From: Alphaproteobacteria bacterium
Lineage (GTDB): Bacteria; Pseudomonadota; Alphaproteobacteria; CAAGCB01; CAG-977
Reading direction: 5' to 3'
Length of the DNA stretch: 64,000 bases
Assembly: GCA_017480385.1 (NCBI GenBank)
Contig: JAFVAT010000033.1
Coordinates: 1 to 64,000 of the forward strand
Below are positions 4,592 through 59,700 of the stretch, piece after piece. Position numbers and translations under genes: made by a program. The notes under the pieces are model-generated. The model was not told the DNA's origin and ran no database searches. It saw nothing but the letters and a program-made list of their open reading frames with translations. Position 1 is the stretch's first letter. Each line of letters begins with the position of its first letter.

Positions 4592-5164
4592 TTATTCCTC
4601 GTCAGCATCTTCCACATCAAAAGCCGCCGTCTCCGTCTGTTTTAACGATTTCGGAGCTTCGGCAACGGCACGTTCCAAATCAGCCTCTGTGCATAATCCC
4701 AGCAAAACAGGATTGCGCGCCTTAATATTGGCCATATTCCAATGTGTTCTGCCGCGAATTGCATCAATAGAATTTTTTGTTGTTCCGATCAATTTGCGAA
4801 TCTGGGCATCAGTCAAATCAGGACGGTGCTTTAACAGCCACGCAATCGCGTCCGGTTTATCCTGACGTTTAGCCATTGGCGTATAGCGCGCACCTTTGGA
4901 CCGCGGCATCAAGGCCGGCAAATCAGAAATATTACGTTTTAAAACAGCATCTTCATCAGCTTCACAGCGTTTGATTTCTTCCTGCGTCAGCTGCCCGTTG
5001 GCAATGGGGTTCAGCCCCATCATGGACGCGCCGACATCACCGTCCGCAATCGCCTGAATTTCCAATGCATGCATACCGCAGAACTGCGCAATTTGATCAA
5101 ATGTTAAAGATGTGTTTTCAACCAACCATACGGCTGTGGCTTTCGGCATAAGTGGTAAAGACAT
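4592..5164 (-). CDS. trcR: TrcR-like cell-cycle transcriptional regulator (DUF1013)
   Basis: A 190-residue protein of the DUF1013 family, restricted to alphaproteobacteria. It begins MSLPLMPKATAVWLVENTSL and carries two helix-turn-helix-like segments (about residues 20-45 and 112-140, TDAQIRKLIGTTKNSIDAI), then an acidic tail. Family members are annotated as the cell-cycle regulator TrcR, reported to associate with RNA polymerase. An AGGGGAA ribosome binding site precedes the ATG at 5164. The gene is upstream of and probably cotranscribed with gapR. Confidence 0.88.
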   Translation of the reverse strand: MSLPLMPKATAVWLVENTSLTFDQIAQFCGMHALEIQAIADGDVGASMMGLNPIANGQLTQEEIKRCEADEDAVLKRNISDLPALMPRSKGARYTPMAKRQDKPDAIAWLLKHRPDLTDAQIRKLIGTTKNSIDAIRGRTHWNMANIKARNPVLLGLCTEADLERAVAEAPKSLKQTETAAFDVEDADEE

Positions 5165-5249
5165 AACATTCCCCTAAAAAAAAAATTATATTTGATTTGG
5201 CAGAATAGCGTAAACGTCCTGTCAGGTCAAAATGATATTTTAAATTCTT

Positions 5250-5606
5250 TTATCGGTAGCCAAACAGTGCTTGTCCTGCCCGTCTGCATGCCGTCATAAA
5301 TTTTCCCGTTCTTTTCCAGCCAGCCGCTTTTTTGAAAGAAAGAAAGCCAAAGCAGCACCTTGTTTTTGTTTCCAACAGACAAACAGGAAAAATCCGATCC
5401 CTGCAGCCTTCCAAAGCATAGCCGCGCGGCTGCTCTGCAATCAAACTCTGCGACTGATTTTCATCAAAACCGCTTTGACACAGCAAATCAAAATGCGAAC
5501 CCTCAAAACCGTCCGGAGCCGCTAAAAGACCGCCGTTCAAAATCACAAACGCTTTGCGCCGTCGGTGAAAATCCGATTCGTCATTATTTTTCTGATTTTC
5601 TGGCAT
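5250..5606 (-). CDS. Small hypothetical protein overlapping the bactofilin gene
   Basis: The 118-codon frame starts inside the last codons of the bactofilin gene (23-nt overlap) and runs on the same strand, so translational coupling is possible. The N-terminal half is well behaved (DFHRRRKAFVILNGGLLAAP, then an acidic/Gln segment ending PRGYALEG). The C-terminal half is Cys- and Lys-rich and could be poorly conserved or out of frame. I do not recognise the family. No independent ribosome binding site is visible. A competing plus-strand frame covers part of the same stretch, so the call is tentative. Confidence 0.5.
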   Translation of the reverse strand: MPENQKNNDESDFHRRRKAFVILNGGLLAAPDGFEGSHFDLLCQSGFDENQSQSLIAEQPRGYALEGCRDRIFPVCLLETKTRCCFGFLSFKKAAGWKRTGKFMTACRRAGQALFGYR

Positions 5607-16000: not shown

Positions 16001-18241
16001 TTACCCGCCGGCTTGTTCCGCGGCTTTTACGGCTTCAGCCTCTGCAGCTTCTTTTTCCTGATCCGCCAACTTTTTCGCCTGAATATAGGCCGGTTCGACA
16101 GACATATCTTCCGGCGGCGGCAGCTTATCCTCTTCGTTGCGCTGATTATAAATGCTGATCGGCAAAGGCGGCGGCGGTTCAAGTTTTGTCTTTTTCGCCA
16201 TTTCCCTGTCTTTAAAATAAGACGGCGTTTTCAGCTTGATCGGCCTGTTATGATGTTTCTGAATCAATGCGTACTGCCGCCCGAACGGCATGTTCATAAT
16301 CGATGAATTAGAAATAATCAGGCCACCCATTGTGCCGTAACTGATGCTTTTAGGCGTCAAAAAGGTCGTTCCCGATCCTATTCCTTCATCACGGCTTTCC
16401 GAAAAGATAACAAACGTTTTCTTTTCAATCAAAGCATTAATGCGCTCCGCCGTTCCGCGACTGTTACAGCGCATGAAAATCTTTGCGCCCGTATTGCCGA
16501 TGATTGTTTCAAGTTCCCCGCCATAGCGGCCGGACAGCTGCGACAAATCCTGACACGTCAGCAAAAAGGCATAATGCTTGGCCAACCCTGTTCCGATTGC
16601 ATCAGCCACATGAAAATCGGACATGCTTTGATATTCATCAAGAATATATAAAACCGGAAACGGACCGCACGGCCCTTCGGACACATCAAAGATCGTCAAA
16701 GTTCCCGAATACATATTGATAAACATCGTCATAACCGTATTCGTCATGCCGTCCAACGGACAGCCCAGATAAAATGTCACAGGCTCCCACTGTCCGGTCA
16801 CGGGATTTTTAATGCCTCGCATCTGCACACTGCCGAAATCGCTGGAGGCCATACGCATACGGATTACCGAGTTTTTAAACGGTGCCAATCCCGATAAGGC
16901 CATGGACAGAACCGAAGACCTCTGCGACTTTGGCAGAGCCAAAATCTGACTGATTTCCACCAAAGCACGACGGTTATATCCGAAATAAGTCGTTTCTTCC
17001 ACAATCTCAGATAAAATTTTAGCCCAGATATCCGTTTTAAAGGCTACCGGATCACCGGCGTCACGTCTGGCCCTTAATTCCGCGGAAACGTCCAGCTGCT
17101 GCTTTGTAATAAAATCCATTAACAGCGGGAAACTCGCCTGACGTCCGATCCATGCTTCCGGAATAGGTTCCCATTTGCCGATCGGCAGGTAGTTTTTAAA
17201 CGTCATCGTCCGATCGCGCACATTATTCAAAGCCTGCTTTACCGCAACACTTTTATCCATTGCGGCATAATATGTTTCAAGGACTTCGTAATCCTCTTCG
17301 TCCATTGCGTTTTCATATAAACGCTGCAGGAAATAATCGTTTGCGCGCGCCTGTTCGCATTTATCACAAATATAGTTGATAAAGCCCTCCAAAGCTGCCC
17401 GACCGGTCTTGATCCAGTAAGGGTCTGTTCCTGTAGGTCCGTCGCCTAACAAAAAATACGCCAACCCGCCGATATATCCCTGCCGTCCCGGAGAAGGCGG
17501 CGGCAAATCCATATCGCTCAACGGGTTCCATGTCGGCCAAAAAACACCGTTTGCCGGATCGTCAATGCCAAAAAAATCAACCCGAAAGACGGGGCCCAAC
17601 GCGGCTCGATGCCCGCCGGTCAGTTCAAAAAGCTCGCCCTTCATATCGTTGATAATCAAGCACTTATCATCATTTGCCAAAATACTTGGCACAACAACCC
17701 CTGACGACTTGCCGCATTCCGGCGCTCCGATCACCAACAAAGACATATAGTTGTTCATGCGCAGCAGTTGCCGGTCGTTCCACAGGCCTAAAACGAAGGA
17801 CATACCGTTCCACAGGCCCATTTTTTTTACATCGCGCTCGTCAGCCAAGCGTCCATCGCCTTCGTTTAATTGTACAAAGTAATACGGATTCGTTTTGGTA
17901 GTGATAATAACACCGGCAATGACAATAAAGACCGGCATGGCCGGAATCCATATGGCAAAACTTTGGAACGGATCGGAGGCAAACTGAATGGCCCAACGAA
18001 AATAACTTTTAAAGTAATAATAAGGGTGAGCCTTCAGATAAATATAATAGCTTTTGACATTTTCCCATGCATGCACCGAAAAATTATGAGAAATCATATG
18101 TCCCAGCGGATAGGCAATCAAGGAAAACAAAAAGGCGGCAAGAAAGGAATAAATACACCCTAATATGACCCAGTCCAGCGCTTTGTAATGCTCGGCAAAG
18201 TTATCGTCCTTACGGGACGGAAGCATAGAATAGCGATCCAT
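16001..18241 (-). CDS. VirD4/TraG-type type IV coupling protein (T4CP)
   Basis: A 746-residue inner-membrane ATPase. Two N-terminal transmembrane helices lie near residues 23-48 and 93-115, with a periplasmic loop of about 45 residues between. The P-loop GAPECGKSSG is at 172-181, followed by IINDMKGELFELT, and the Walker B-like FPVLYILDEYQSM is near 530. These define the TraG/VirD4 family, which recruits substrates to type IV secretion or conjugation channels. The last 90 residues are Pro- and Glu/Ala-rich. No relaxase, VirB or Dot/Icm gene is nearby. It is the last gene of a three-gene operon, 3 nt after a pentapeptide-repeat gene, with TTAGGAG before its ATG. Confidence 0.9.
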   Translation of the reverse strand: MDRYSMLPSRKDDNFAEHYKALDWVILGCIYSFLAAFLFSLIAYPLGHMISHNFSVHAWENVKSYYIYLKAHPYYYFKSYFRWAIQFASDPFQSFAIWIPAMPVFIVIAGVIITTKTNPYYFVQLNEGDGRLADERDVKKMGLWNGMSFVLGLWNDRQLLRMNNYMSLLVIGAPECGKSSGVVVPSILANDDKCLIINDMKGELFELTGGHRAALGPVFRVDFFGIDDPANGVFWPTWNPLSDMDLPPPSPGRQGYIGGLAYFLLGDGPTGTDPYWIKTGRAALEGFINYICDKCEQARANDYFLQRLYENAMDEEDYEVLETYYAAMDKSVAVKQALNNVRDRTMTFKNYLPIGKWEPIPEAWIGRQASFPLLMDFITKQQLDVSAELRARRDAGDPVAFKTDIWAKILSEIVEETTYFGYNRRALVEISQILALPKSQRSSVLSMALSGLAPFKNSVIRMRMASSDFGSVQMRGIKNPVTGQWEPVTFYLGCPLDGMTNTVMTMFINMYSGTLTIFDVSEGPCGPFPVLYILDEYQSMSDFHVADAIGTGLAKHYAFLLTCQDLSQLSGRYGGELETIIGNTGAKIFMRCNSRGTAERINALIEKKTFVIFSESRDEGIGSGTTFLTPKSISYGTMGGLIISNSSIMNMPFGRQYALIQKHHNRPIKLKTPSYFKDREMAKKTKLEPPPPLPISIYNQRNEEDKLPPPEDMSVEPAYIQAKKLADQEKEAAEAEAVKAAEQAGG

Positions 18242-18244
18242 CTC

Positions 18245-19624
18245 CTAACTCCTTTGCTTTTGGCGCTGTCGTTTAACGCGCATGCGGGAACGGGCAGGCT
18301 GGCGGCGGGGAATGACTTTTTCCATAACCTTCTTGACTACGTTTTCAGCGGCTTTCACAACTTCCTGAACAGCGGTCGATTTTTCTTTAACCGTTTTTTT
18401 CTCTTCTTCATCAACCGGATACAAGATCGGAAAATCGTATTTGCTGGGCGGCAATTCGATTTTAGGCCTTGGGCGGTGCGTCACCAGACTTTTAGCGCCG
18501 CTTTTTAAAGCGGGTCTCTGTTCCAAAACAACGTCCTGCAGCCGCGCTTTCATTTCCTCCGGCGAAGCTTGATTTAACCGGCGGGACTTTAAAAAAGCCA
18601 ACTCCGGCGATAAACCGTCCTCTTCAGCCAAAATCTCCATGGGCCTTTCTGCAACGGCGGACAGCCCTTCTTCAGGCTGTTTGTTTAACGGTTCCGACAT
18701 CGTATCGACCGCGGGACGAAGCTCATTTTTAACGCGCAGTTCCTCCGCCGCCCGATTGATTTCCTCCACCCGTTTTTGTTCTTCCTGCTGGTTGGCCACA
18801 CGCTTGCGGCGCAGAATTTCCAGCTCGGTCAGGTTAGCCCTCATCTGGTTAGCCGTCGTCAGATCAAGTCCGGCAAAATTTCCCTTTTTAATTTCGACTT
18901 TTCTGCCGGCGCCCTGTTTAAACGCATAAGTGCCGTCCAAATACATCGGATCAATTTTGACGCCCGTTAAATTCACACCGACCAGATTCACGCCGGATAA
19001 GTCCACTCCGGTTAAATCCACTCCGCGCAGATCCAGCTTGCGCAAATCAAGATATTTCAAATTAACCTTGCGCAGATCCAGCTTGCCTTCTTCAGCATCG
19101 CGCTGCATCTGCTGCATTTTTTCCAGCTCGTTCAAGGCCTGTTTGGTCAGCTTTGCACCGATAATCTTAGCGTTTTTTAAATACGCGCCGTCTAATAAAG
19201 CGCCTTCTAAATTGGCGCCTTCCAAATCGGCCTCTTCCAGATTCACGCCGCGCAGGTCCGCCCCGCGCAGATCGGCACCGCGCAAATCAACACCGGCCAG
19301 ATTAGCATTCTTTAAATCGGCATTCTGCAAATTAATCGAAGATAGGTCCGCCCCGGAAAAATCCACTTCGGACAAATCCGCCCCGACAAATTTATTGACT
19401 TCGCCCTGCCCCAAACAGCGTACAACTAAAACAGCATTGTCATCTTTTTCCCAGCCGTTAAATTTGTTCTTGCGCTGCTGCAATTCATCAATGATACGGA
19501 CTCCCGCGACATAACTGACGTCGGAATCGGAAAGATCGACCGATTTCGGAGCCGGTCGTTTGGTCAAAGCACTGTACACACCTTGACTTGCTTGATTCGC
19601 ATCGTTGCCCGTATTTTCCGTCAT
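18245..19624 (-). CDS. Pentapeptide-repeat protein encoded with the coupling ATPase
   Basis: A 459-residue soluble-looking protein. A 78-residue leader precedes A(D/N)LXX pentapeptide repeats at about 79-160 (FSGADLSSINLQNADL) and again at 180-227 (GVDLTGVDLSGVNL), with a partial third run near 248-268. The two runs predict two right-handed beta-helical blocks joined by a short helix. After a coiled segment the C-terminal 190 residues are charged and the end is very basic (RQPARSRMRVKRQRQKQ). No signal peptide is seen. The function is unknown; close linkage to the coupling protein (3-nt gap) suggests an adaptor or substrate. The basic tail could bind nucleic acid or membrane. Confidence 0.85.
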   Translation of the reverse strand: MTENTGNDANQASQGVYSALTKRPAPKSVDLSDSDVSYVAGVRIIDELQQRKNKFNGWEKDDNAVLVVRCLGQGEVNKFVGADLSEVDFSGADLSSINLQNADLKNANLAGVDLRGADLRGADLRGVNLEEADLEGANLEGALLDGAYLKNAKIIGAKLTKQALNELEKMQQMQRDAEEGKLDLRKVNLKYLDLRKLDLRGVDLTGVDLSGVNLVGVNLTGVKIDPMYLDGTYAFKQGAGRKVEIKKGNFAGLDLTTANQMRANLTELEILRRKRVANQQEEQKRVEEINRAAEELRVKNELRPAVDTMSEPLNKQPEEGLSAVAERPMEILAEEDGLSPELAFLKSRRLNQASPEEMKARLQDVVLEQRPALKSGAKSLVTHRPRPKIELPPSKYDFPILYPVDEEEKKTVKEKSTAVQEVVKAAENVVKKVMEKVIPRRQPARSRMRVKRQRQKQRS

Positions 19625-19635
19625 GCGCGTTCTTT

Positions 19636-20730
19636 TTACTCTGCCGCTTCCGCATCTGCCGCAGCAACCGCCGCTTTATTCTCGGCCACATTTTGTTTCA
19701 GCTGCTCTATATCAAAATTCGGATCCTGTTTTTCCGCTTCCAATCGTGCCCCTAAAACCAGATCCGTATTTAAAATACGTGCGGAATAAGATGTCATTGC
19801 GGCCTTCGCCCCTTCCAGAGTCGAAATCAGCTGCTTATCAATTTGAGCGGAAGAAAAAGTCAGTCCTTCCAGATCCTGATTCATCAAAGAGAAAAAGATA
19901 TTTTTTTTCAGTTCCACGTCCACAAAATTCGCCGCAGAAGCTGCAAAAACCTTAGAACGAATAATATTGTTCAAAATCGTTTCGTTAATAATGGTTTCGG
20001 AACGGAAATTCCTGACATCAACAATATCCAGTTTTCCCTCTTTCGCCTTAAGATATTTCGGCAGCTCACCTTTCATTTTCAATTGAGTCGCTTCAACTTT
20101 TCCTTTTTTAACGGCCTTGTCGTTCCAAACGGGAATTTCCAGCTTGCGGACTGTCATTTCGCCGTTTTCCAGCATAGGAGTCCCCTCCTTTTCGCCGATA
20201 TTGAAGTCCTTCAAAACAATTTCTTTCGCTTTCATTAAATACGGCACGGCGGATTGATTGGATTTTTGGCTGGGAATGACAACGAAATCATTGACGGACA
20301 AGGCATCTTTAGCCACATCATAGGAGATATGTTCGTATTTTATGTTATAATCGTCAGACGCCATAAAAGATTTGAAGTTTGAAATGGCTTTCTGTGCAGC
20401 AGCCTTTTCAATTTCGTCTTTTGAAGGGCCGGTATACACGCGGCGTTTAAAGGTTGACCTATAGGGCTCTTTTGCTCCCTTCTTTTTCTTTGTATCCGTA
20501 CTTTTAGCCTTATTCGACTTTTGCTTTTTAAAATACGGATTAGCCTCCGAATCATCGTCCCAAATCGACGATTTAGATTGGTTTTCCTGTTTTCGAAGGA
20601 TCGCTTTAGCCTCCTGTGCTTTATACTGTTGCACAAGCTTATCATGTCTTCCCTGCGCTTTTGCCTGCGGCACAAAAAAACAACCCGCAAAGACAAGAAG
20701 TACCCCTAAGGCAATGCTTTTATTTTTCAT
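19636..20730 (-). CDS. Secreted or periplasmic protein of unknown function, first gene of the coupling-protein operon
   Basis: A 364-residue protein with a clear signal peptide (MKNKSIALGVLLVFAGCFF, cleavage probably after QAKA near residue 25). A Lys/Gln-rich stretch follows (about 26-105), then a mixed alpha/beta domain (about 115-330) rich in alternating beta-strand patterns, and an Ala/Glu tail. I do not recognise the family. AAGGGG precedes ATG 20730. It is 11 nt upstream of the pentapeptide gene, so the three genes form one operon and the protein may be the periplasmic part of the same machinery. Confidence 0.8.
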   Translation of the reverse strand: MKNKSIALGVLLVFAGCFFVPQAKAQGRHDKLVQQYKAQEAKAILRKQENQSKSSIWDDDSEANPYFKKQKSNKAKSTDTKKKKGAKEPYRSTFKRRVYTGPSKDEIEKAAAQKAISNFKSFMASDDYNIKYEHISYDVAKDALSVNDFVVIPSQKSNQSAVPYLMKAKEIVLKDFNIGEKEGTPMLENGEMTVRKLEIPVWNDKAVKKGKVEATQLKMKGELPKYLKAKEGKLDIVDVRNFRSETIINETILNNIIRSKVFAASAANFVDVELKKNIFFSLMNQDLEGLTFSSAQIDKQLISTLEGAKAAMTSYSARILNTDLVLGARLEAEKQDPNFDIEQLKQNVAENKAAVAAADAEAAE

Positions 20731-20804
20731 TAGAAAGCCCCTTCTAAAAAGACAACCTTTTTATTATTTATATCAGGAAAACGCTGTTCTGCCCACAAAA
20801 TAAT

Positions 20805-20835
20805 AAACCGCCGAAGAAATTCACTCCGGCGGTTT
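20805..20835 (-). terminator. Intrinsic terminator after the first pepN gene
   Basis: A 9-bp stem AAACCGCCG/CGGCGGTTT with a 13-nt loop is followed on the minus strand by ATTATTTTG. It separates the pepN gene from the downstream coupling-protein operon. Confidence 0.75.
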
Positions 20836-20850
20836 CAAGAATTATAAAGG

Positions 20851-23712
20851 TCAGCGTCCCTGCATCTTGCTGCGCGCGACCTGAACAGTTTGCGTCTGAG
20901 AAGATGGCGCAACGACCTTTGCTTTTGTACCTTCCAACAAAGCAGGATGAACAGGCGTATTTGCCTTGCCGTTCGCACCGGACACAAAGACTTTCAGAGG
21001 CTCGCGCTTCAGGAAAGCGTCCGTTTTGGCACGCTTCTGCAATTTTGCCTTGTTTTCCAAAATCTTGGTTTTCTTGTCTTCCGTATCACCCAAAGCTTTG
21101 GAAACGACTTCGTAAACGTTTTTGGACAATCCGGGCTTCGCCATAATCTTTTCCAAAGCGCCTTTCATCATTTCCTGACGTTCGGAATCGAAACGGCGCC
21201 AAGATGTCAAAGGCTTTGCCACATCGGCAGCGACCAGAGGATTGATTCCGTCCAGTTTCAACGCCATATCGGCGACAAATTCGTAACCGGAGCCATCTTT
21301 GGCATGGAAAGCCTTCTGATTGCCGGAGAAGCGGCGCATAACGGAACGGACCTTGTTCGGATTCGTAATCGCGAACGCTTCGTGATCAACGGCCTTTTTC
21401 GCGCCTTCCAACCCTTCGGAAGCAACAACGCCCAACCACTTATTGACAACCAGTTCTTCATCCTTAAAGCGATCGTAGAAATCGGAAACAACGGCTTTAC
21501 CCGATTCCATACCGGCGGCGATTGTCATCGCAGCCAGACGGTCGGTCATATTATTCGCCTTTTCATATTGTGCCGTAACACGATCCGTGTATTCCGGCTT
21601 GTCCATAGAAGCCAGATAAGCCAACGCCTTGTTTTTCAGCGCGCGTTCGCCAGCGTCTTTTGCGACGGGTTCGAACGGCTTTTCGACATCCAATTCGTCG
21701 TACGTTCTGACCAGATCCTTTTCAAAGCGGGCGACAAACGCTTTGGATACCATGGAGCGGGCTTTGGCGACCGCGTCGACGTCGACGACATCCATCTGGT
21801 CGGCGATGTATTTTTCGCTCGGCAGTTCCAGAGCTTTTGCGACAAACGCCTTGTCCAAAGACGGATCTTTCAGATAAGAGCCCAACGCGTTCAAATATCC
21901 GTCGTCAACCTTGGGTTCTTTGCCGGCCTGAATATCCTTGACCATATCCAGCATTTTCTTGACGCCGTACTGCTGAGCCGCATCCCAACGGTTGAACAGA
22001 TCAGAATCGTGCGCCATCAGATGAGCGCGTTCCGCATCCGTGTAGTCCATATGGAAGTTGATCGGCGCCGTAAAGTCACGGTTGGCGGACAGAACAGGCT
22101 TTTCCTTGACATTAACGAATGTAAAAGTCGCTTCGTCCTGATCCATAATTATCACACGGGAAGTTCCCTGCGCTTCCTTTTCACCGGCCAGCTGCAAAGG
22201 CATGTCTTTGCCGTCTTTGTCCAGCAATCCCATTTCCATCGGAATGACAAACGGCAGCTTTGTTTCCTGTCCCGGAGTCGGCTTTGTCGCCTGACGCAGC
22301 TTCAGCGTATAGGTCTGATTCTTTTCATCATAGACGCCTTCTGCATAAACAGATGGCGTGCCTGCCTGCGAATACCAACGTTTGAATTGAGTCAAATCCT
22401 TGCCGGAAACGTCTTCCATACACTTAGCGTAATCATCAATCGTCACAGCCTTGCCGTCGTTGCGGGAAAAATGCAGATCATTGGCTTCGCGGAACTTTTC
22501 CTTGCCCAGCATCTTTTCGTACATACGGACAATTTCAGCCCCTTTGTTGTAAATCGTTGACGTATAGAAGTTATTGATTTCAACATAGGATTCGGGGCGG
22601 ACGGCGTGAGCAGTCGGACCGGCGTCTTCCGCGAATTGACCTGCGCGCAGAGTCGCCACGTCTTCAATACGGTTCACGGAACGGGAGCGCATATCGCGCG
22701 AAAATTCCTGATCACGGTAAACCGTCAGACCTTCTTTCAGGCTCAGATTGAACCAGTCGCGCACCGTCACGCGGTCGCCCGACCAGTTGTGAAAATATTC
22801 GTGGCCAACGACGCCCTCAATGCCAGCATAATCGTCGTCCGTCGCCGTATGAGCATCCGCAATCACATAAGAACTGTTGAAAATGTTCAACCCCTTATTT
22901 TCCATAGCGCCCTGATTGAAGTCGGAAACAGCGACCAGATTAAACAAATCCAAATCGTATTCGCGGCCAAAAACTTTTTCGTCCCACGCCATGGAACGCT
23001 TGATCGAATCCATGGTATAGTCCAGCTTATCTTTTTGACCCTTATTGGCATAAACGCCCAAAGTCACTTCACGGCCCGACATTGTGACAAACTTATCATT
23101 GATATAATCCAGATCGCCGCCGACCAAAGCAAACAGATAGGACGGTTTCGGGAACGGATCTTTCCATGTTACGGCTGTTCTGCCGTCTTCCATTTTTTCT
23201 TCTTTGATCATATTGCCGTTGGACAGCAGGCAGGGCAGTTTATCCTTGTCCGCACGGATTGTCGTCGTGAAAACGCTCATCACATCGGGGTGATCCATGT
23301 AATATGTAATGCGACGGAAACCTTCGGGTTCGCACTGTGTGCAGAACATGCCGTTCGATACGTACAGCCCTTCCAGTTTTGTATTCGCCTTTGGGTGGAT
23401 TTCCGTTCCGATCGACAATTCAAATTCCTTCGGCGGATTCAGAATTGTCAACCCCTTATCGTCAACAACATATTCTTTCGGATCCAAAGGACGTCCGTCA
23501 ATGGCGATGCCTGTCAAAGTCAGTTCATCGCCGTCCAAATGCAGAGGACGGACCTCTCCCGTGGAGGCATCGTAATCGCTTTTAATTTTTAATGTAGAGG
23601 CAACCTGTGTGTTTTCCTCGTCCAAATCGAAATCCAAATGCACGGATTCGATTTTATAATCGGGTTTTTTGTAATCCTTTAAATATTTGACCTTTGGTGA
23701 ATTTTCCGACAT
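20851..23712 (-). CDS. pepN: Aminopeptidase N (M1 family), copy 1
   Basis: A 953-residue M1 zinc aminopeptidase. The GAMEN exopeptidase motif (QGAMENKGLN), the zinc site HEYFHNWSGDR and the second Glu in SLKEGLTVYRDQEFS are intact. The order of domains and the length match E. coli-type PepN, plus a C-terminal extension of about 70 Lys-rich residues that the neighbouring paralogue lacks. It removes N-terminal residues from peptides in the cytoplasm. The start is ATG 23712 with AGGGG before it, 12 codons inside the longest frame. A close paralogue lies immediately upstream on the same strand. Confidence 0.95.
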   Translation of the reverse strand: MSENSPKVKYLKDYKKPDYKIESVHLDFDLDEENTQVASTLKIKSDYDASTGEVRPLHLDGDELTLTGIAIDGRPLDPKEYVVDDKGLTILNPPKEFELSIGTEIHPKANTKLEGLYVSNGMFCTQCEPEGFRRITYYMDHPDVMSVFTTTIRADKDKLPCLLSNGNMIKEEKMEDGRTAVTWKDPFPKPSYLFALVGGDLDYINDKFVTMSGREVTLGVYANKGQKDKLDYTMDSIKRSMAWDEKVFGREYDLDLFNLVAVSDFNQGAMENKGLNIFNSSYVIADAHTATDDDYAGIEGVVGHEYFHNWSGDRVTVRDWFNLSLKEGLTVYRDQEFSRDMRSRSVNRIEDVATLRAGQFAEDAGPTAHAVRPESYVEINNFYTSTIYNKGAEIVRMYEKMLGKEKFREANDLHFSRNDGKAVTIDDYAKCMEDVSGKDLTQFKRWYSQAGTPSVYAEGVYDEKNQTYTLKLRQATKPTPGQETKLPFVIPMEMGLLDKDGKDMPLQLAGEKEAQGTSRVIIMDQDEATFTFVNVKEKPVLSANRDFTAPINFHMDYTDAERAHLMAHDSDLFNRWDAAQQYGVKKMLDMVKDIQAGKEPKVDDGYLNALGSYLKDPSLDKAFVAKALELPSEKYIADQMDVVDVDAVAKARSMVSKAFVARFEKDLVRTYDELDVEKPFEPVAKDAGERALKNKALAYLASMDKPEYTDRVTAQYEKANNMTDRLAAMTIAAGMESGKAVVSDFYDRFKDEELVVNKWLGVVASEGLEGAKKAVDHEAFAITNPNKVRSVMRRFSGNQKAFHAKDGSGYEFVADMALKLDGINPLVAADVAKPLTSWRRFDSERQEMMKGALEKIMAKPGLSKNVYEVVSKALGDTEDKKTKILENKAKLQKRAKTDAFLKREPLKVFVSGANGKANTPVHPALLEGTKAKVVAPSSQTQTVQVARSKMQGR

Positions 23713-23884
23713 ATTTTTTCCCCTGTTAAAGGTTTCTGCGTTGTCCAAATCTTGTCCATACTACTCAGTTTTTTTGTCCAGAATCAAGAAAAAAAAGCAT
23801 CTGTTTTATTTTTTTCAAATTGTTTTAAACCGCTTGATATCTCTTTATGTTTGAGATAGCAAACTTGCTCTTTTCCCAAATTGT

Positions 23885-23947: not shown

Positions 23948-26602
23948 CTATCCAGCCAACGATTTGGAAACCAATTCATAAACGTTCTTTGACAATCCTG
24001 GTTTGGCCAACACTTGTTCCAAAGCGTCTTTCATCATATTCTGCCGCTTTTCATCAAAACGTTTCCAGCGCATCATCGGACGCACCATATGACAGGCCAT
24101 TTGCGGGTTAAATTCGTCCACTTTGATTGCCATTTCGGCGGCCAAAGCATATCCGGATCCGTCCGCCTTATGGAATTCCGGCTGGTTATATGCAAATCCG
24201 CCCATGACAGAACGCAATTTATTCGGATTCTTAATCTCAAAAGCAGGATGGTTCATCAGTTTGCGCACAACGTTAACGGCATCGGGACGATCCGCGCAGG
24301 CACATGAAAACAACCACTTATTGATCACGCCGTCATCATGTTTATTTTGCTGATAGAAGTCCTCCAGAATTTCTTCGCGCTTCGGATCTTTAGAATTAGA
24401 ACAGATATTCATCGCTGCTAATTTATCCGACATATTATTGGCCGAAAAATACTGGTGCTGAACGATCTGATCAATCTCTTCAATTTCCAGATTGCCCAAG
24501 AATGACAGCGCCATATTTTTCAAAGACCGCTTAGCCGCATCCTCCGTCGTAAACCGATACGGCTGCGTTCCGAAATCATTTTCGTGATAAACGGCCAGCA
24601 ATTCCTGTTTGTACCGCGTGGCCAATACTTTTTTCAGATGCGCGCGGACAAGATGAATCGCATCGACATCAACAACGTCCATTTTATCCGCCATATAATT
24701 TTCCTGCGGCAACGTGATCAAACGGGCGATGTAAGCGGGATTGAGCGTTTTGTTCGTCAGATATCCGCCCCACAGTTTAATGTATTCCTCACTGACCGCC
24801 GGTTCTTTTTCTCCGCTCTGCACCGCTTTAATCATATCCAGCATCAGCTTGACCGCATATTGCTGCGAAGCGTCCCAACGGTTGAACAGATCAGAATCGT
24901 AACGCGCCTGATGAACGCGTTCTTCTTCAGAATAATCCATGACGAAATGAATCGGCGCCGTAAAATCACGGTTAGCAGATAAAACGGGCTTTTCTGACAC
25001 ATTAACAAAAACAAACGTCTGTTCCAGTTTGTCCAAAACCAAAATGCGCGACGTTCCCTGCGCCCGGTCTTCACCTTCCAGCTGCAACGGCATATCCTGC
25101 CCGTCTGGTCCGATCAGTCCGATTCCCAAAGGAATCACAAACGGCAGTTTTTCCGGCTGATTCGGCGTCGGTTTTGTTTCCTGTTTCAGAGACAGCGTAT
25201 ACTTTTTTGCAGTCGCATCATATTGAGCTGAAGCCGTTACAACAGGCGTTCCGGCCTGAGAATACCAACGTTTAAACTGCGTCAGATCAGCATGGTTGGC
25301 ATCTTCCTGACATTTGGCAAAATCATCAATCGTGACCGCCTGCCCGTCATGACGCGTAAAGTACAAAGTGCACCCCTTGAGGAAATTTTTCTTACCGAAA
25401 AGCTTTTCGTACATACGAATCACTTCCGCGCCCTTGTCATAAACGGTTGCCGTATAATAATTATTGATTTCCAAGTATGATTCCGGTCGCACCGAATGAG
25501 CCAAAGGACCGGCGTCTTCAGGAAACTGACGCGTGCGCAGATCAAACACATCGTTGATTCTGTTCAGTGAACGCGAGTGCATATCGCGCGAAAATTCCTG
25601 ATCGCGGTAAACAGTGAAACCTTCTTTCAGGCTCAGGTTGAACCAGTCACGTGCCGTAACACGATCGCCGGACCAGTTGTGAAAATATTCATGCGCAATG
25701 ACGCCTTCGACATGGGCGAAATCGATATCCGTTCCCACGTCTTTGTTCACCAAAGCGCAGGAGGTGTTAAAGATGTTCAGTCCCTTGTTTTCCATTGCCC
25801 CCATGTTGAAATAGGAAACGGCAACGATATTGAACAAATCCAAATCGTATTCCAGCCCGTAAACGTCTTCGTCCCATTTCATCGCTCTTTTCAAAGATTC
25901 GAGTGCGAAAGACGCCTGATTTTCATAGCCGTGTTCGACATAAATTCCCAATTTGACCTCACGACCGGATTTTGTCGTAAACGTATCGTGCAAAGACGCC
26001 AGATCTCCGCCGACGATAGCGAACAAGTAACACGGCTTTTTAAACGGATCATGCCACGTCACTAAGTGTTTCCCGTTTGGCAGATCTTTCTTTTCGACCG
26101 GATTGCCGTTGGACAGCAGAATGGGGTATTTTTCCTTATCCGCGATCAAAGTTGTCGTAAAACTGCTCATCACATCGGGGTGGTCCAGATAATACGTAAT
26201 GCAGCGGAACCCTTCTGGTTCGTTTTGAGTGCACAGGGCACCGTTGGAATAATACAGTCCTTCCAATCGCGTATTGGCTTTCGGGTGAATTTCTGTTCCG
26301 ATTTCCAATGTGAATTTTTCCGGCGGATCAAATACGGTCAAGCTTTTTTCAGCCACTTCATATCGATCTGCCGGCAGTTCTTTTCCGTCCATTTTAATAT
26401 ACTTGAACGTTAAATGATTTCCGTCCAAAACTAAAGGACGAATCCCTGCCGTCCGATCATAATCACTGGAAATTTCAAGAGTTGACGCAACCTGCGTATT
26501 TTCTTCATCCAGATCAAAAACCAAATTGACCGAATCGATTTTAAAATCCGGTTTTTTATAATCTTTTAAGTACTTCATCTGCGGTTTTTCGGCTGTTTTC
26601 AT
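23948..26602 (-). CDS. pepN: Aminopeptidase N (M1 family), copy 2
   Basis: An 884-residue M1 aminopeptidase with GAMENKGLN, HEYFHNWSGDR and SLKEGFTVYRDQEFS, so it keeps all zinc and catalytic residues. It aligns throughout with the downstream copy (shared starts such as MKYLKDYKKPDFKI and long identical stretches around the active site) but ends without the C-terminal extension. The pair looks like an old tandem duplication with divergence, since large parts differ. Different substrate preference is possible and cannot be read here. ATG 26602 has only a distant AAGGA, so the start is less certain. Confidence 0.94.
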   Translation of the reverse strand: MKTAEKPQMKYLKDYKKPDFKIDSVNLVFDLDEENTQVASTLEISSDYDRTAGIRPLVLDGNHLTFKYIKMDGKELPADRYEVAEKSLTVFDPPEKFTLEIGTEIHPKANTRLEGLYYSNGALCTQNEPEGFRCITYYLDHPDVMSSFTTTLIADKEKYPILLSNGNPVEKKDLPNGKHLVTWHDPFKKPCYLFAIVGGDLASLHDTFTTKSGREVKLGIYVEHGYENQASFALESLKRAMKWDEDVYGLEYDLDLFNIVAVSYFNMGAMENKGLNIFNTSCALVNKDVGTDIDFAHVEGVIAHEYFHNWSGDRVTARDWFNLSLKEGFTVYRDQEFSRDMHSRSLNRINDVFDLRTRQFPEDAGPLAHSVRPESYLEINNYYTATVYDKGAEVIRMYEKLFGKKNFLKGCTLYFTRHDGQAVTIDDFAKCQEDANHADLTQFKRWYSQAGTPVVTASAQYDATAKKYTLSLKQETKPTPNQPEKLPFVIPLGIGLIGPDGQDMPLQLEGEDRAQGTSRILVLDKLEQTFVFVNVSEKPVLSANRDFTAPIHFVMDYSEEERVHQARYDSDLFNRWDASQQYAVKLMLDMIKAVQSGEKEPAVSEEYIKLWGGYLTNKTLNPAYIARLITLPQENYMADKMDVVDVDAIHLVRAHLKKVLATRYKQELLAVYHENDFGTQPYRFTTEDAAKRSLKNMALSFLGNLEIEEIDQIVQHQYFSANNMSDKLAAMNICSNSKDPKREEILEDFYQQNKHDDGVINKWLFSCACADRPDAVNVVRKLMNHPAFEIKNPNKLRSVMGGFAYNQPEFHKADGSGYALAAEMAIKVDEFNPQMACHMVRPMMRWKRFDEKRQNMMKDALEQVLAKPGLSKNVYELVSKSLAG

Positions 26603-38527: not shown

Positions 38528-38602
38528 GTTTTAGGCTTGTTTCTTGGCAAGTTTTTTAGGAGAATGCTTAAAATATCTTTATTTAACAGGAGCCTTTTAT
38601 TC

Positions 38603-40738
38603 ATGCCAGAACAGCCAAATACCCCAACTGCGGAAGAAGTTGAATACGAATATGTAGAAGTCCCGGAAGGACAAGCAGCAGAATATACCGAAACGGCTGA
38701 ATATGAATATGTTGAAGTTCCGGAGGGACAGGAAATAGAGTACGAATACGTTGAGGCGCCTGCAGCGGAAACGCCGGCGGTCGGAGAAGCTGTTGAGTAT
38801 GAATACGTTGAACAAGAAGTCCCGACCTTAGAGGCTGCGCCGGCAGCTGAAGAAGCCGTTGAGTATGAATATGTCGAACAAGAAGTCCCGACCTTAGAGG
38901 CCGCGCCGGCAGCTGAAGAAGCCGTTGAGTATGAATATGTCGAACAAGAAGTTCCTACCTTAGAGGCTGCGCCGGCAGCTGAAGAAGCCGTTGAGTATGA
39001 ATATGTCGAACAAGAAGTTCCTACCTTAGAGGCTGCGCCGGCAGCTGAAGAAGCCGTTGAGTATGAATATGTCGAACAAGAAGTCCCGACCTTAGAGGCT
39101 GCGCCGGCAGCTGAAGAAGCCGTTGAGTATGAATATGTCGAACAAGAAGTTCCGACATCAGAGGCTGCGCTGGCAGCTGAAGAAGCCGTTGAGTATGAAT
39201 ATGTCGAACAAGAAGTTCCGACATCAGAGGCTGCGCCGGCAGCCAGTATGCCCGCTGAACCGGAATTGCCAGAAGAGCTGGAACTCGCAGCGGCACCGGA
39301 GGCCCCTCTGCCCGAAGAACCGGAACTCGCAGCGGCACCGGAAGCTCCTCTGCCCGAAGAACCGGAACTTGCAGCGGCACCGGAGGCCCCTCTGCCTGAA
39401 GAGCCGGAACTTGAGGCAGCACCGGAAGCTCCTCTGCCTGAAGAACCGGATCCTGCAGCGGCACCGGAAGCTCCTCTGCCCGAAGAACCGGAACTTGCAG
39501 CGGCACCGGAAGCTCCTCTGCCTGAGGAACCGGAACTCGCAGCGGCACCGGAGGCCCCTCTGCCTGAGGAACCGGAACTTGCAGCGGCACCGGAAGCTCC
39601 TCTGCCTGAAGAACCGGAACCTGCAGCAGCACCGCAGGAAGATGTTGCTTCCAATGCTGAGGATTTAGAAGCCGTCAGTGAAACAGAAGCAAAAACGGAT
39701 CAGGCGTATGGCCCCGTTGAAAATGCGGCTTCTGCCGAAGAATTAGAATCTTTGGAAGCGCCCGCCGAAGCAAACGATTTGGAAACATTGGCAGCGGCAA
39801 CCGCCGCCGCGGTCGGAACGGCAGCCATAGATGCTCTGGCGGAGGAAGCTGCCGAGGAAGCCAATGAACCGGAAGATGATACTCAAATCATCGCTGAAGA
39901 AACGCAGGAAGAATCCGATCCGCAGGACGAATCAGACATGCTTCCCGCAACCGGAGGCTATTCCTTTGACGGTGCGCAAACCGCAAGTTTCGCCGGTTCC
40001 GACGTTATGGACAGCATCATTTTAACAAATGCTTCCCATGCCTTTGACCGGCTGTCCGAATGGTATTTGCTGATCAGCGAATTTTCAGTCACACCGCTGG
40101 AAGGCCAAAACGGTGCGGAAGTTCCGTTATCCGATGATATATTCTGCCAAGGAGCCTTCTTAAACGCGGACGGTTCTCATGCTCCCTTTGCCAATGAAGC
40201 TTTGCTGACCGTGCCTTCGGATCAAACCAATTTAGTTTTATGCGGATTGAACGCCATGTCTTTGGCCGGACAGGAAAATTCAACAATCGAGCTGTCCGAT
40301 TCCAACGGCATGCTGATCGGTCCGAATAACGTCCGGCTGATGTTCAGTCATGTGAACAAGCTCATCGTCCCTGATCTTCCGCCCCAATCTTCTGAAAACG
40401 CGCCGCGCAATGAACCGATTGTCTATGATCTGTCTCTGCCGGTCAAAAAGACTCAAGATGTTTTTATATTCTCAGCTGACAACAGTTCTGCCGAAACAGA
40501 CAAGGCTCATGTTTTAATCAAAGCCGGCTACAGTTTATACGGCTGGAATGTGTCCTTTGATAACGGGCAAATGATGAGTCTGGCAGATGTGCGTACCTAT
40601 CAAACAAGGCATGGCGTCCTGCCCGATGCAAACGGCAGAATCAGTTACGGCAAAACGCAGCTAACCTTTAAAAATGCTCAAAAAATCGGCGTTTATGAAA
40701 AGCCATCCTATTGCGGTTACGGCAAAAAGCCGGAATAA
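38603..40738 (+). CDS. Long acidic repeat protein (EYEYVE and APEAPLPEEP repeats) of unknown function
   Basis: A 711-residue protein. After MPEQPNTPTAEEVEYEYVEV come degenerate EYEYVE units, seven 22-residue repeats (VEYEYVEQEVPTLEAAPAA plus EEA), then eight 14-residue repeats (ELAAAPEAPLPEEP), an Ala/Glu linker (about 350-450) and a non-repetitive C-terminal domain (about 455-711) with mixed strands. The repeats are strongly acidic with Tyr pairs and Pro, so they should form an extended stalk or disordered spacer. There is no classical signal peptide. The ATG at 38603 (AGGAG 11 nt upstream) is preferred to 38537. I do not recognise the C-terminal domain. A scaffold or surface role is inferred only. 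Confidence 0.85.
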   Translation: MPEQPNTPTAEEVEYEYVEVPEGQAAEYTETAEYEYVEVPEGQEIEYEYVEAPAAETPAVGEAVEYEYVEQEVPTLEAAPAAEEAVEYEYVEQEVPTLEAAPAAEEAVEYEYVEQEVPTLEAAPAAEEAVEYEYVEQEVPTLEAAPAAEEAVEYEYVEQEVPTLEAAPAAEEAVEYEYVEQEVPTSEAALAAEEAVEYEYVEQEVPTSEAAPAASMPAEPELPEELELAAAPEAPLPEEPELAAAPEAPLPEEPELAAAPEAPLPEEPELEAAPEAPLPEEPDPAAAPEAPLPEEPELAAAPEAPLPEEPELAAAPEAPLPEEPELAAAPEAPLPEEPEPAAAPQEDVASNAEDLEAVSETEAKTDQAYGPVENAASAEELESLEAPAEANDLETLAAATAAAVGTAAIDALAEEAAEEANEPEDDTQIIAEETQEESDPQDESDMLPATGGYSFDGAQTASFAGSDVMDSIILTNASHAFDRLSEWYLLISEFSVTPLEGQNGAEVPLSDDIFCQGAFLNADGSHAPFANEALLTVPSDQTNLVLCGLNAMSLAGQENSTIELSDSNGMLIGPNNVRLMFSHVNKLIVPDLPPQSSENAPRNEPIVYDLSLPVKKTQDVFIFSADNSSAETDKAHVLIKAGYSLYGWNVSFDNGQMMSLADVRTYQTRHGVLPDANGRISYGKTQLTFKNAQKIGVYEKPSYCGYGKKPE
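38792..39253 (+). repeat. Seven in-frame 66-bp tandem repeats (22-residue unit)
   Basis: Units starting GTTGAGTATGAATA recur every 66 bp from 38792. Copies 2-6 are nearly identical at the DNA level, with silent and a few coding changes, which indicates recent expansion. They encode VEYEYVEQEVPT plus a ten-residue Ala/Glu segment. Confidence 0.95.
39281..39616 (+). repeat. Eight in-frame 42-bp tandem repeats (14-residue unit)
   Basis: Units starting GAACTCGCAGCGGCACCGGA recur every 42 bp and encode ELAAAPEAPLPEEP. Copies 4 and 5 carry substitutions (LEAAP, DPAAAP). A partial ninth copy follows to about 39632. Confidence 0.95.
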
Positions 40739-56717: not shown

Positions 56718-59700
56718 TTAACGACGGCGAATAATAATAGAGTTATCCCTGTTTATTTCCGTCTGACTTTCGTCCTTTTTCTCAGCTTCCGGTTCCGCAG
56801 TCAACGTCGGCTGCAAAACAGCTGAGGTTTCCGTCTTTGAAGAAACAGGAGAAGCCTGTGTTCCATCTTTTCGCACGATTGTTCTTTGACGTTCGCGCAA
56901 TTCAGCCTCCTGCCTTGCTTTTTCTGCGGCAGCCGCTTCTTCGGCAGCCTTCTTGGCTTCTTCTTCGGCTTTCTTCTTCAGCTCTTCAGCCTCCCACCTG
57001 GCCTTTTCTTCCGCGGCGATTCTCGCATTGTTTTGTTCAATTGCCTCTTGCGTTTTTTGATGCAGCTCTTTGATTTTATCCAAGTCTGCTTCGGCCTGTC
57101 CCAGCAATATCGTCAAATCCTCCTGACTGATACTGTCACTTTCCGACCGGGAATGAATATCTTTAATATTCTTCACTATTTGCTTAATAGCAGTGATATT
57201 CTGCGATATATCCAGTTCTTTTCCATGGGCCGACTGCGCTTTTGTTTCCTGACGCAAAATCTCATTTGCCTGATTCAAAACATCAAAAACGGCCCCTTTG
57301 GATCCGACCGTCATCGCCGTATTATAGCTGGCATCAATCTCGCTTTCCTTATCAAAATAAATGCTTTGAACTTTCTTTTCCAGAGCCTCTATTCCCGCTT
57401 CGGAGATCCGGTCCTCAGCGACAGCCTTTTTGGCCTTTTGAATTTCATCATTCAAAGCGGCCAGAGTGCTTTCCGCATTATCCAAAGTACGCAAATACTT
57501 GTGCACCTGATAAACCTTTTCGGAAATCGGTCTGACGACGCCGATTTTTTTGGCCAGTTCCGCAGAGGCCATTGTCAAACGCTCATCAAGGCGGTTCAGA
57601 CGTTCTGTCAGCTGACGACGGTTCTTTTCATGCGCCTCTATTTCCCTTTGCTGACGTTGCAATTCCTTTTGACGCGCTTGCTCTTTTTGCTGATCTTTCA
57701 ATGTGGTCACAGCCTGAGCTACCTCCGCTATATTTTGCGTCAATACGGCCTGTTGCTTCCCTGTTTTGCTGACAGACAAAGAAACATTCGGTATTGTCTG
57801 CATGTTTAAAGGAAAAGAAATGCCCGCGGATAAAGCGTGCCCTAAATAGTTATACGTTAGGAACGGCGATGTATTCTTGACCCCATTATAGAAAAAAGAG
57901 CCAGGCTGTAACGCAAAAACGCCGTCTTTAATGCTCAGATCCGCCGCAAAACGACTGATCTCCGTTTGGCCTTTTAATGCCCCCGACTGCAGCGCTTCCG
58001 CAGAAATTCCCGGCAGTTTGGCCATATCCTGCGTCAACTGCGCCATATTAAACTGATCCAGTTCTGCCTTTTCAAAACTCAGCGATCCTGTTCCTGTCAA
58101 GGACGACATCAGAGCATCTGTCGTTTTGCCGTTTCCACTGACAGTTGCATTAAGAATCATCGCATCGACGGCGCTGATATTCAGCGTATCCGAATCAAAC
58201 AGCTTCGCAGGCACATTAATATTAGAAATACGGACAGCCCCCCGCATGGAAAGCGTTTCTTCGGCAGGCATCAAATTAATAATTCCGCCCACATTCGCTT
58301 TATTCCACAGAGCACGACGCAGATCAATAACGATTTTATCTGATGAAAGTTTGATAATGCTGTCAAAATCAGACAAAACAAGCGAATTAAAAAACAAATT
58401 ATTCGTTTTAAGGGCAATCGAAGCTTCGTATTTTCCCAAAAATGAAAAATCAAAAGCTTTTTTAGAAAAAGACAAACTATCGGCAAAACGCGTCAAAGCT
58501 CCGTCTTTTTCCCATACGTTTTCAGGAATCGCCCTGCGCGTATCAATCGCCAGAGAATCTACGAAATTAATCTTGGGCAGCAGTCCTAACAAAGCTAAAT
58601 TCTCACCGCTTATTTCGGCATTCACGACAGGAATTTCACCCTGGTCGTTTATTTTGACCGACCCGACGAACTCGTTATCCCCGATTTGAACATTCATATC
58701 CAATAATTGAAATATGTCTTTGTTCTTGACGATTTGTCCTTTAAAATTCAGTACGCCGGGATTAGCCAAAACCGGGCGGTAACTGTCCGAAAACAAGCGG
58801 ACAAAATTTCTGAAGTTTTCATGATAAATCTCAACGGTCGCGCTCCAGTCAAACACGCCTAAAGCCGCCTCTTTGAAATCTCCGCGTCCGCCGAAACGAG
58901 CCGCGCCAAAATCGGCGGTCGCATCAAAATCCATCATCTGCAAGGTTCCCGTTAATCGGGACGACAGCTGCAGTTTATCCTGAGGAGCAATGCCGCGCGG
59001 CAGGGAAATGCCCAAGCTCTGCGTCAATGAAGAAAGCTGTTTCGCATCAATATTGACTTTAAAATTATTAAATTTAGGCTCGGCCCCAAATCCTTCCGTC
59101 TCCCCTTGAAGCGAAATGGAAGAAGCAAACAATTTCTCCATTGAAAGATCGTTGATTTTCATCTGGCCGCGCACAACAGTAAAATCAGACTTGATGTTTT
59201 CCGCTTTAATATCCGCCCATGAAAGAGAGTTCGAAGTTAATTTAACATTCAGATCAATGTTATTCAAAAAGGCAAGATAATCAAACAGGTCTTTCAGCTT
59301 GCGTCTCAAGGGCAGCCGGGCAAACTCTTCGCGTTTTTGAACAAATTCCTTGCTGCGGACGGGAAAATACTGCGCAAAATTCAAATCAGAAACGTCTGCC
59401 GTCACGCTGACAGCCTTTCTGTTCCCCATGCGCATAGCAAAACTTCCCGAAAAATCAGTCTTATCCAGCGTGCCCTTGATCTGCTGCAGAACAATCCCGC
59501 CGGAAGCCAGCTTAAATTCCGTTTCCGCTTTAAACTGCCGCAGTAAATTCTGCGGAATTTCCTCCGCCGCGGGAATATTCAGCCAATTCAAAACAGCATT
59601 AATATTCGCCGCATCAACGGTTACTTTCCCGGACAGCATCGGCTTCTTCGTCAAAGCCAGCGTTGCCCGCCCATTCACATAGGCGTTGCTGGGCAGAGTG

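What the first reader, a model, noticed from the sequence alone, without database searches (positions are those of the whole stretch)
16001..20730. Isolated VirD4-type coupling ATPase in an operon with a pentapeptide-repeat protein and a secreted unknown
Three genes with gaps of 11 and 3 nt encode a signal-peptide protein, a two-block pentapeptide-repeat protein with basic tail, and a complete T4CP. Coupling proteins are normally found with a relaxase or channel genes; none is present within the window, and the flanks are housekeeping genes (flavodiiron protein, pepN). The trio may be the recruitment part of a dispersed type IV secretion system, with the pentapeptide protein as adaptor.
Basis: partly seen in the sequence, partly recalled or inferred. 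Interest (0 to 1): 0.72.

Follow-up and report, generated by a model that had tools for sequence, protein, structure and literature searches.

The report
Paralogous secretion coupling ATPase with pentapeptide partner
Gut-type Alphaproteobacteria carry a second, anciently duplicated coupling ATPase of their own scattered type IV secretion system, kept next to a pentapeptide-repeat protein for most of its history, which suggests an undescribed accessory substrate-receptor module rather than a stray conjugation gene.

Summary
In detail: a minus-strand operon SEC (19636-20730), two-block pentapeptide protein PPR (18245-19624) and complete VirD4-type coupling protein T4CP-2 (16001-18241), with gaps of 11 and 3 nt, among housekeeping genes. 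It is not an isolated or mobile-element gene. The same genome carries a VirB/VirD4-class system on other contigs: VirB4, VirB6, VirB11, a 2,355-aa VirB10, and its own coupling protein T4CP-1. T4CP-2 forms one clade (SH-aLRT 99-100) beside T4CP-1, so the two arose by an ancient duplication and were inherited vertically. The PPR/T4CP-2 gene pair is conserved in the window's order and in four further families with different neighbours. Of 385 sampled Alphaproteobacteria, all 16 with T4CP-2 also have T4CP-1. SEC is a fast-evolving, own-family addition. The best reading is an accessory substrate-receptor module of that secretion system, with PPR as cytosolic adaptor or regulator. Against a strict adaptor role: PPR survives where T4CP-2 is lost (G277, G061), and in G353 where T4CP-1 is also absent; distance matrices show no PPR/T4CP-2 co-evolution beyond the species tree. 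PPR could instead be a conserved substrate. Function is inferred; no paper found describes the pair.

The parts
16001..18241 (-). T4CP-2: second VirD4/TraG-type coupling ATPase, 746 aa
   Evidence: Pfam PF02534 E 3e-33, PF12696 8e-11; own clade beside T4CP-1
18089..18184 (-). first hydrophobic (transmembrane) segment of T4CP-2, residues 20-51
   Evidence: hydropathy scan
17891..17971 (-). second hydrophobic (transmembrane) segment of T4CP-2, residues 91-117
   Evidence: hydropathy scan
17705..17728 (-). Walker A GAPECGKS, residues 172-179
   Evidence: alignments: G177 and K178 invariant, middle residues drift between species
16634..16651 (-). Walker B LYILDE, residues 531-536
   Evidence: Asp invariant; Glu replaced by Asp or Asn in 7 of 16 T4CP-2, in none of 24 T4CP-1
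18245..19624 (-). PPR: cytosolic two-block pentapeptide-repeat protein, 459 aa
   Evidence: Pfam PF00805 E 4e-36; no hydrophobic segment; AF2 block 1 pLDDT about 73-89
19145..19393 (-). pentapeptide block 1, residues about 78-160
   Evidence: sequence and AF2 strand pattern; Foldseek matches pentapeptide solenoids, E 1.5e-6
18929..19078 (-). pentapeptide block 2, residues about 183-232
   Evidence: conserved L-D-L-R pattern in alignments; AF2 confidence for this block is low
18248..18307 (-). basic C-terminal tail of PPR, residues 440-459, net charge +10
   Evidence: mean +7 over 26 homologues; only 3.4% of internal 20-mers are as positive
19636..20730 (-). SEC: secreted (periplasmic) protein, 364 aa, fast evolving, own family only
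   Evidence: orthologues in own family only; AF2 pLDDT 70.8; weak Lpt-like beta fold
20656..20730 (-). signal-peptide-like N-terminus of SEC (residues 1-25)
   Evidence: hydrophobic stretch 3-25 ending in AKA-QG, read from the sequence
20766..20800 (-). conserved promoter-like element (TTTTGTGG ... TGRTATAAA) upstream of SEC
   Evidence: alignment of 8 relatives
20808..20832 (-). hairpin plus T-rich stretch between pepN and SEC, probable terminator of pepN
   Evidence: CCGCCGG/TCGGCGG stem kept with changed bases in relatives

Best explanation
PPR and T4CP-2 are an accessory coupling (substrate-recruitment) module of the chromosomal, scattered VirB/VirD4-type secretion system of this alphaproteobacterial clade. 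Shown by sequence: T4CP-2 arose by an ancient duplication of the system's own coupling protein (T4CP-1), keeps the membrane anchor, the nucleotide-binding lysine and the Walker B aspartate, is found only where the secretion system is found, and is nearly always encoded directly behind PPR. Inferred: T4CP-2 sits in the inner membrane at the base of the same channel, as its own ring or mixed with T4CP-1. PPR, a rigid beta-solenoid with a disordered linker and a basic tail, binds T4CP-2 in the cytosol and presents or gates a class of substrates different from those of T4CP-1. Relaxed ATPase motifs suggest T4CP-2 acts more as receptor or regulator than as the main motor. SEC is a lineage-specific periplasmic addition to the operon.
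For: One genome carries VirB4, VirB6, VirB10 and VirB11, T4CP-1 and T4CP-2. T4CP-2 is one clade, SH-aLRT 99, and 100 after removal of the longest branches, beside T4CP-1 and apart from conjugative outgroups. Of 385 sampled class genomes, 24 have T4CP-1 and 16 have T4CP-2; all 16 lie inside the 24. In the order, T4CP-2 is in 12/12 genomes and T4CP-1 in 11/12; the exception, G011, lacks VirB4 too but keeps the giant VirB10, so a gap in the assembly is likely. PPR lies immediately upstream of T4CP-2 in families f1, f22, f39, f48 and f90 among different neighbours: pepN, mutL/pgi/lspA, uvrA, rarA. T4CP-2 and PPR are under purifying selection. Walker A is invariant in T4CP-1 of these families but drifts in T4CP-2, with GK(S/T) kept.
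Against: PPR persists without T4CP-2 in G277 (T4CP-2 absent at the syntenic locus), in G061, and in G353, a 100%-complete genome with no T4CP of this family at all. In G080 the two genes are unlinked. Several genomes with T4CP-1 (G378, G079, G368, G291, G013, G032) have neither, though two of these are incomplete. Distance matrices show no PPR/T4CP-2 co-evolution beyond the species signal (partial r about 0.19, p 0.11-0.15). There is no physical or genetic evidence of an interaction, and no substrate is known.
Confidence: 0.5

Rival explanations
1. PPR is a conserved translocated substrate (effector) whose dedicated receptor is T4CP-2. Its basic C-terminal tail is the secretion signal, and the pentapeptide solenoids act in the target cell.
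For: C-terminal tails are basic in all 26 homologues, mean +7 in the last 20 residues, as expected for VirB/VirD4 substrates (own knowledge). Rickettsia SrfD is a secreted effector with two pentapeptide blocks and coiled coils (PMC11258249), and cREM-4 has a pentapeptide block (PMC11077975). PPR can stay when T4CP-2 is lost, since T4CP-1 could take over in G277 and G061.
Against: At a stable locus, well conserved (61-82% identity within the family), and co-linear with T4CP-2 across families, whereas effectors usually turn over. G353 keeps PPR with no T4CP at all.
Confidence: 0.22
2. PPR is a negative regulator or plug of the coupling proteins, in the manner of CagZ: it holds T4CP-2 or T4CP-1 out of the active ring until needed. 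The solenoid may imitate DNA in the T4CP channel.
For: CagZ binds the all-alpha domain of Cag-beta and traps it as a monomer (PMC9886983). Pentapeptide solenoids of the MfpA/Qnr kind imitate DNA (own knowledge; structural matches). The 3-nt gap suggests coupled production with T4CP-2.
Against: Block 1 has net charge only -6 and block 2 has 0, so it is a poor DNA mimic. No sequence or fold relation to CagZ was seen.
Confidence: 0.12
3. T4CP-2 and PPR left secretion and do another job (for example a membrane DNA or protein translocase). Their restriction to genomes with the secretion system reflects only shared ancestry.
For: The Walker B glutamate is lost in 7 of 16 T4CP-2, and evolution is faster than in T4CP-1. 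PPR is kept in G353 without any T4CP.
Against: All 16 T4CP-2 genomes of the class sample have T4CP-1; none was found without the system apart from one assembly-gap case, G011.
Confidence: 0.12
4. The trio is a remnant or part of an integrated conjugative element with its own relaxase.
For: Coupling proteins are typical of such elements; sister genomes do carry extra VirB4/VirB10 sets of conjugative size.
Against: Housekeeping flanks on both sides, syntenic in relatives. The locus is deeply conserved: pepN upstream also in f22, and mutL/pgi/lspA beside it in both f1 and f90. No mobility gene in the window. Vertical tree. Nearest plasmid T4CPs are only about 25% identical.
Confidence: 0.02

Closest known systems
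VirD4/TraG-type type IV coupling proteins (Pfam PF02534)
   Same: Domain content, two N-terminal membrane segments, Walker A/B, TraG-D C-terminal region
   Different: It is a second copy inside a genome that already has the system's T4CP-1, it carries relaxed ATPase motifs in several lineages, and it is paired with a pentapeptide protein
Dot/Icm coupling complex (DotL with DotM, DotN and adaptors)
   Same: Idea of a coupling ATPase with dedicated recruiters; DotM reads charged C-terminal signals (PMC5802825)
   Different: The system here is VirB/VirD4-class, DotB models score far below cut-off, and no Dot/Icm adaptor contains pentapeptide blocks to my knowledge
CagZ with Cag-beta (Helicobacter Cag system)
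   Same: Small dedicated soluble partner of a VirD4 ATPase (PMC9886983)
   Different: CagZ is a U-shaped protein without pentapeptide repeats to my knowledge; no second coupling protein is involved
SrfD of Rickettsia parkeri
   Same: Two pentapeptide blocks plus coiled coils in an alphaproteobacterium with a VirB-type system (PMC11258249)
   Different: SrfD is a secreted effector known only in Rickettsia; PPR is a conserved gene fixed beside a coupling protein
Qnr/MfpA/HetL pentapeptide proteins
   Same: Right-handed pentapeptide solenoid
   Different: All NCBIfam equivalog scores are far below cut-off. Long disordered linker and basic tail; two blocks split by a helix
Rickettsiales rvh system
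   Same: VirB-type system with duplicated components in Alphaproteobacteria (PMC11077975)
   Different: Here the duplicated component is the coupling protein, and VirB10 is giant (1,280-2,838 aa in most genomes)

Membership tests
VirD4/TraG coupling proteins | Conserved NTPase domain (PF02534, PF12696) | tested here: met
   E 3.2e-33 and 7.9e-11, both above the curated cut-off
VirD4/TraG coupling proteins | N-terminal membrane anchor with two transmembrane segments | tested here: met
   Hydrophobic stretches 20-51 and 91-117
VirD4/TraG coupling proteins | Walker A and Walker B motifs | tested here: met
   GAPECGKS and LYILDE in the window protein; catalytic Glu not kept in 7 of 16 orthologues
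VirD4/TraG coupling proteins | A transport channel of the same class in the genome | tested here: met
   VirB4, VirB6, VirB10, VirB11 and T4CP-1 on other contigs
VirD4/TraG coupling proteins | Delivers substrates to the channel | not testable with these tools
   Needs secretion assays
Pentapeptide-repeat proteins | Tandem A(D/N)LXX repeats | tested here: met
   PF00805 E 4.4e-36, 122.5 bits against cut-off 20.2; Foldseek matches to pentapeptide solenoids
Qnr/MfpA gyrase-protection proteins | Passes the family's curated score | tested here: not met
   MfpA 52.9 of 360 bits, Qnr 47.6 of 240 bits
Dot/Icm (type IVB) systems | DotB-type ATPase and DotG-type component | tested here: not met
   The genome's ATPases score best as VirB11 and PilT; DotB 16 and 59 of 463 bits. 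The VirB10-type protein matches TrbI, which does not by itself exclude a distant DotG
Integrated conjugative element | Relaxase or integrase next to the coupling gene | tested here: not met
   None among about 34 scanned window proteins; conserved housekeeping synteny
Integrated conjugative element | Relaxase elsewhere in the genome | not tested
VirB/VirD4 secretion substrates (for PPR) | Basic C-terminal signal | tested here: met
   Mean +7 in the last 20 residues of 26 homologues; suggestive only
VirB/VirD4 secretion substrates (for PPR) | Translocation by the system | not testable with these tools
   Needs a reporter assay
Lpt-type beta-jellyroll proteins (for SEC) | LptA/LptC-like fold | tested here: inconclusive
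   Best Foldseek E 1.3e-3, TMt 0.46; VIA Z 6.9 at most, tied with unrelated folds

The most novel reading that the evidence does not exclude
A type IV secretion system with two paralogous coupling proteins has turned the second into a largely non-motor receptor that works through a pentapeptide solenoid adaptor, so that one channel serves two substrate classes. This would be a coupling architecture that I found described for no VirB/VirD4 system.
Probability: 0.2. Interest if true: 0.75.

Novelty: new variant of a known kind. Interest (0 to 1): 0.55.

Why it matters
Substrate choice in type IV secretion rests on the coupling protein, and systems are normally described with one. A conserved second copy, kept since the divergence of several alphaproteobacterial families and paired with a pentapeptide protein, would show how one channel can acquire a second entrance. 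It would also give pentapeptide-repeat proteins, most of which have no known role, a place in a defined machine. The host bacteria of the nearest named records are uncultured rumen and gut Alphaproteobacteria whose secretion system is otherwise undescribed in the papers I could search.

Tried and rejected
Conjugative-element origin: rejected by synteny, tree and window content. Dot/Icm membership: not supported by model scores. DNA mimicry by PPR: block charges -6 and 0 do not favour it. Electrostatic docking of the basic PPR tail on the acidic T4CP-1 tail (up to -36 in 50 residues in the own family): tail charges do not track each other across families, so not claimed. Specific PPR/T4CP-2 co-evolution: partial matrix correlation about 0.19, not significant; two earlier runs of that script failed on a thread setting. 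The promoter motif of the trio was not found before the T4SS genes in the stretches of C6, C9, C26 and C28 that I read, so shared regulation is unsupported. VIA-align gave no Lpt-specific match for SEC standing above unrelated rows. phmmer found no PDB chain for T4CP-2. Literature searches for pentapeptide plus coupling protein, second VirD4, and the host group found no prior description.
Full report
WHAT IS THERE. On the minus strand, three ORFs follow each other: SEC (19636-20730, 364 aa), PPR (18245-19624, 459 aa) and T4CP-2 (16001-18241, 746 aa), with gaps of 11 and 3 nt. T4CP-2 is a full coupling protein by Pfam, has two membrane segments and intact Walker motifs. PPR is a soluble two-block pentapeptide protein with a basic tail. 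SEC has a signal-type N-terminus. A hairpin and a promoter-like element lie between pepN and SEC and are conserved in relatives, so the trio is probably its own transcription unit. The rest of the window is housekeeping: flavodiiron protein, tandem M1 aminopeptidases, enolase, TIM, PEPCK and others, with no relaxase, VirB or integrase.

NOT ISOLATED. The genome (2.03 Mb, 40 contigs) holds a second coupling protein, T4CP-1, on contig C9, with a VirB6/TrbL protein nearby. VirB4 is on C6, and VirB11 with a 2,355-aa VirB10/TrbI protein is on C28. Model scores place these in the VirB/VirD4 class, not Dot/Icm. There is one VirB4 and one VirB10 match in this genome, hence most likely one system, scattered over the chromosome. 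A giant VirB10 (1,280-2,838 aa in most) is a hallmark of the clade.

ANCIENT DUPLICATION. In the order, T4CP-2 is in 12 of 12 genomes and T4CP-1 in 11 of 12. The exception, G011, also lacks VirB4 but keeps a 2,336-aa VirB10, which points to missing contigs. In 385 sampled Alphaproteobacteria, 24 genomes have T4CP-1 and 16 have T4CP-2, all 16 within the 24 (my count). These searches scored only the best two candidates per genome. In the tree, T4CP-2 is one clade (SH-aLRT 99; 100 without the longest branches), beside T4CP-1 and away from plasmid and other outgroups. Long-branch joins remain a caveat. Nearest plasmid relatives are only about 25% identical, and a phylum-wide sample at E <= 1e-60 found no further carrier outside those already seen.

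THE PAIR, NOT THE TRIO, IS CONSERVED. PPR sits directly before T4CP-2 in f1, f22, f39, f48 and f90, while neighbours differ: pepN in f1 and f22; mutL, pgi and lspA in f90 and in part of f1; uvrA in f39; rarA in f48. The shared pepN and mutL/pgi/lspA neighbours argue for an ancestral chromosomal locus. SEC was found only in f1 and evolves much faster (dN/dS about 0.13-0.21 against 0.03-0.05 for T4CP-2; dS is near saturation). Its AF2 model (pLDDT 70.8) is a beta-rich type with weak Lpt-like matches that are not decisive.

WHAT ARGUES AGAINST A SIMPLE ADAPTOR. In f48, G277 keeps PPR at the same locus where its relative G182 has PPR and T4CP-2, but T4CP-2 is gone. G061 has PPR and T4CP-1 without a full T4CP-2 (a short fragment scores weakly as T4CP). 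G353, a 100%-complete genome, keeps PPR with no T4CP of this family at all. In G080 the two genes are unlinked. G042 has a T4CP-2 behind a 159-aa ORF with only a weak PPR match. Distances of PPR and T4CP-2 do not correlate beyond the species signal. So PPR has some role that can outlast T4CP-2.

MECHANISM. T4CP-1 keeps Walker A APPGTGKT and the Walker B Glu in all 24 copies, whereas T4CP-2 keeps GK(S/T) and the Walker B Asp but replaces Glu in 7 of 16. This suggests binding of nucleotide with relaxed catalysis in some lineages, that is, a receptor or regulator more than a motor. PPR, a solenoid with a long linker and a basic tail (mean +7 in the last 20 residues), is the natural cytosolic partner: adaptor (preferred), CagZ-like regulator (PMC9886983), or itself a substrate (compare SrfD, PMC11258249). 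Everything from 'sits at the channel base' onward is inference.

STATUS. The components are known kinds; their combination, a paralogous coupling protein with a pentapeptide partner in one VirB/VirD4 system, was not found in the searched literature, which holds open-licence papers only. I rate it a new variant of a known kind. Names such as f1 or G277 are the session's codes; the nearest named records are rumen and gut Alphaproteobacteria assembled from metagenomes.

Noticed in passing
L022:1268-8335 (G000 contig C28): VirB10/TrbI protein of 2,355 aa with some 23 beta-flower repeat matches before the TrbI domain; relatives range mostly from 1,280 to 2,838 aa. Giant VirB10 marks this system.
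   Followed up: partly
L011:6517-8886 (G000 contig C9): T4CP-1 ends in an extremely acidic tail (net -34 in the last 50 residues); similarly acidic in the own family and in G061, weaker elsewhere.
   Followed up: partly
L011:5308-6483 and 4864-5298: Two unnamed genes beside T4CP-1 are conserved in nearly all T4CP-1 loci; the first has a C-terminal stretch that looks HNH-nuclease-like by eye, the second resembles SMI1/KNR4 proteins by eye. No informative Pfam match.
   Followed up: no
L020:16007-17605 (G000 contig C6): A secretin gene and pilus-type genes lie a few kb from VirB4, so the scattered system may share a locus with a type IVb pilus.
   Followed up: no
window 20851-23748 and 23948-26602: Two M1/PepN-type aminopeptidase genes in tandem on the minus strand, conserved in relatives.
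   Followed up: no
L023:1395-5927 (G000 contig C9): A 1,510-aa low-complexity protein with YYxDENGxPYYxD repeats lies on the same contig as T4CP-1 and VirB6.
   Followed up: no
genome handle G013: 72 pentapeptide-repeat matches in one 1.9-Mb genome that also has T4CP-1.
   Followed up: no
genome handles G002, G004, G006, G007: These sister genomes carry additional VirB4 and ordinary-sized VirB10 (about 380 aa) genes on shared contigs, probably conjugative elements separate from the scattered system.
   Followed up: no
window 56718-61022 and 38537-40738: Large ORFs (1,434 and 733 aa) without any Pfam match at E <= 1e-4.
   Followed up: no
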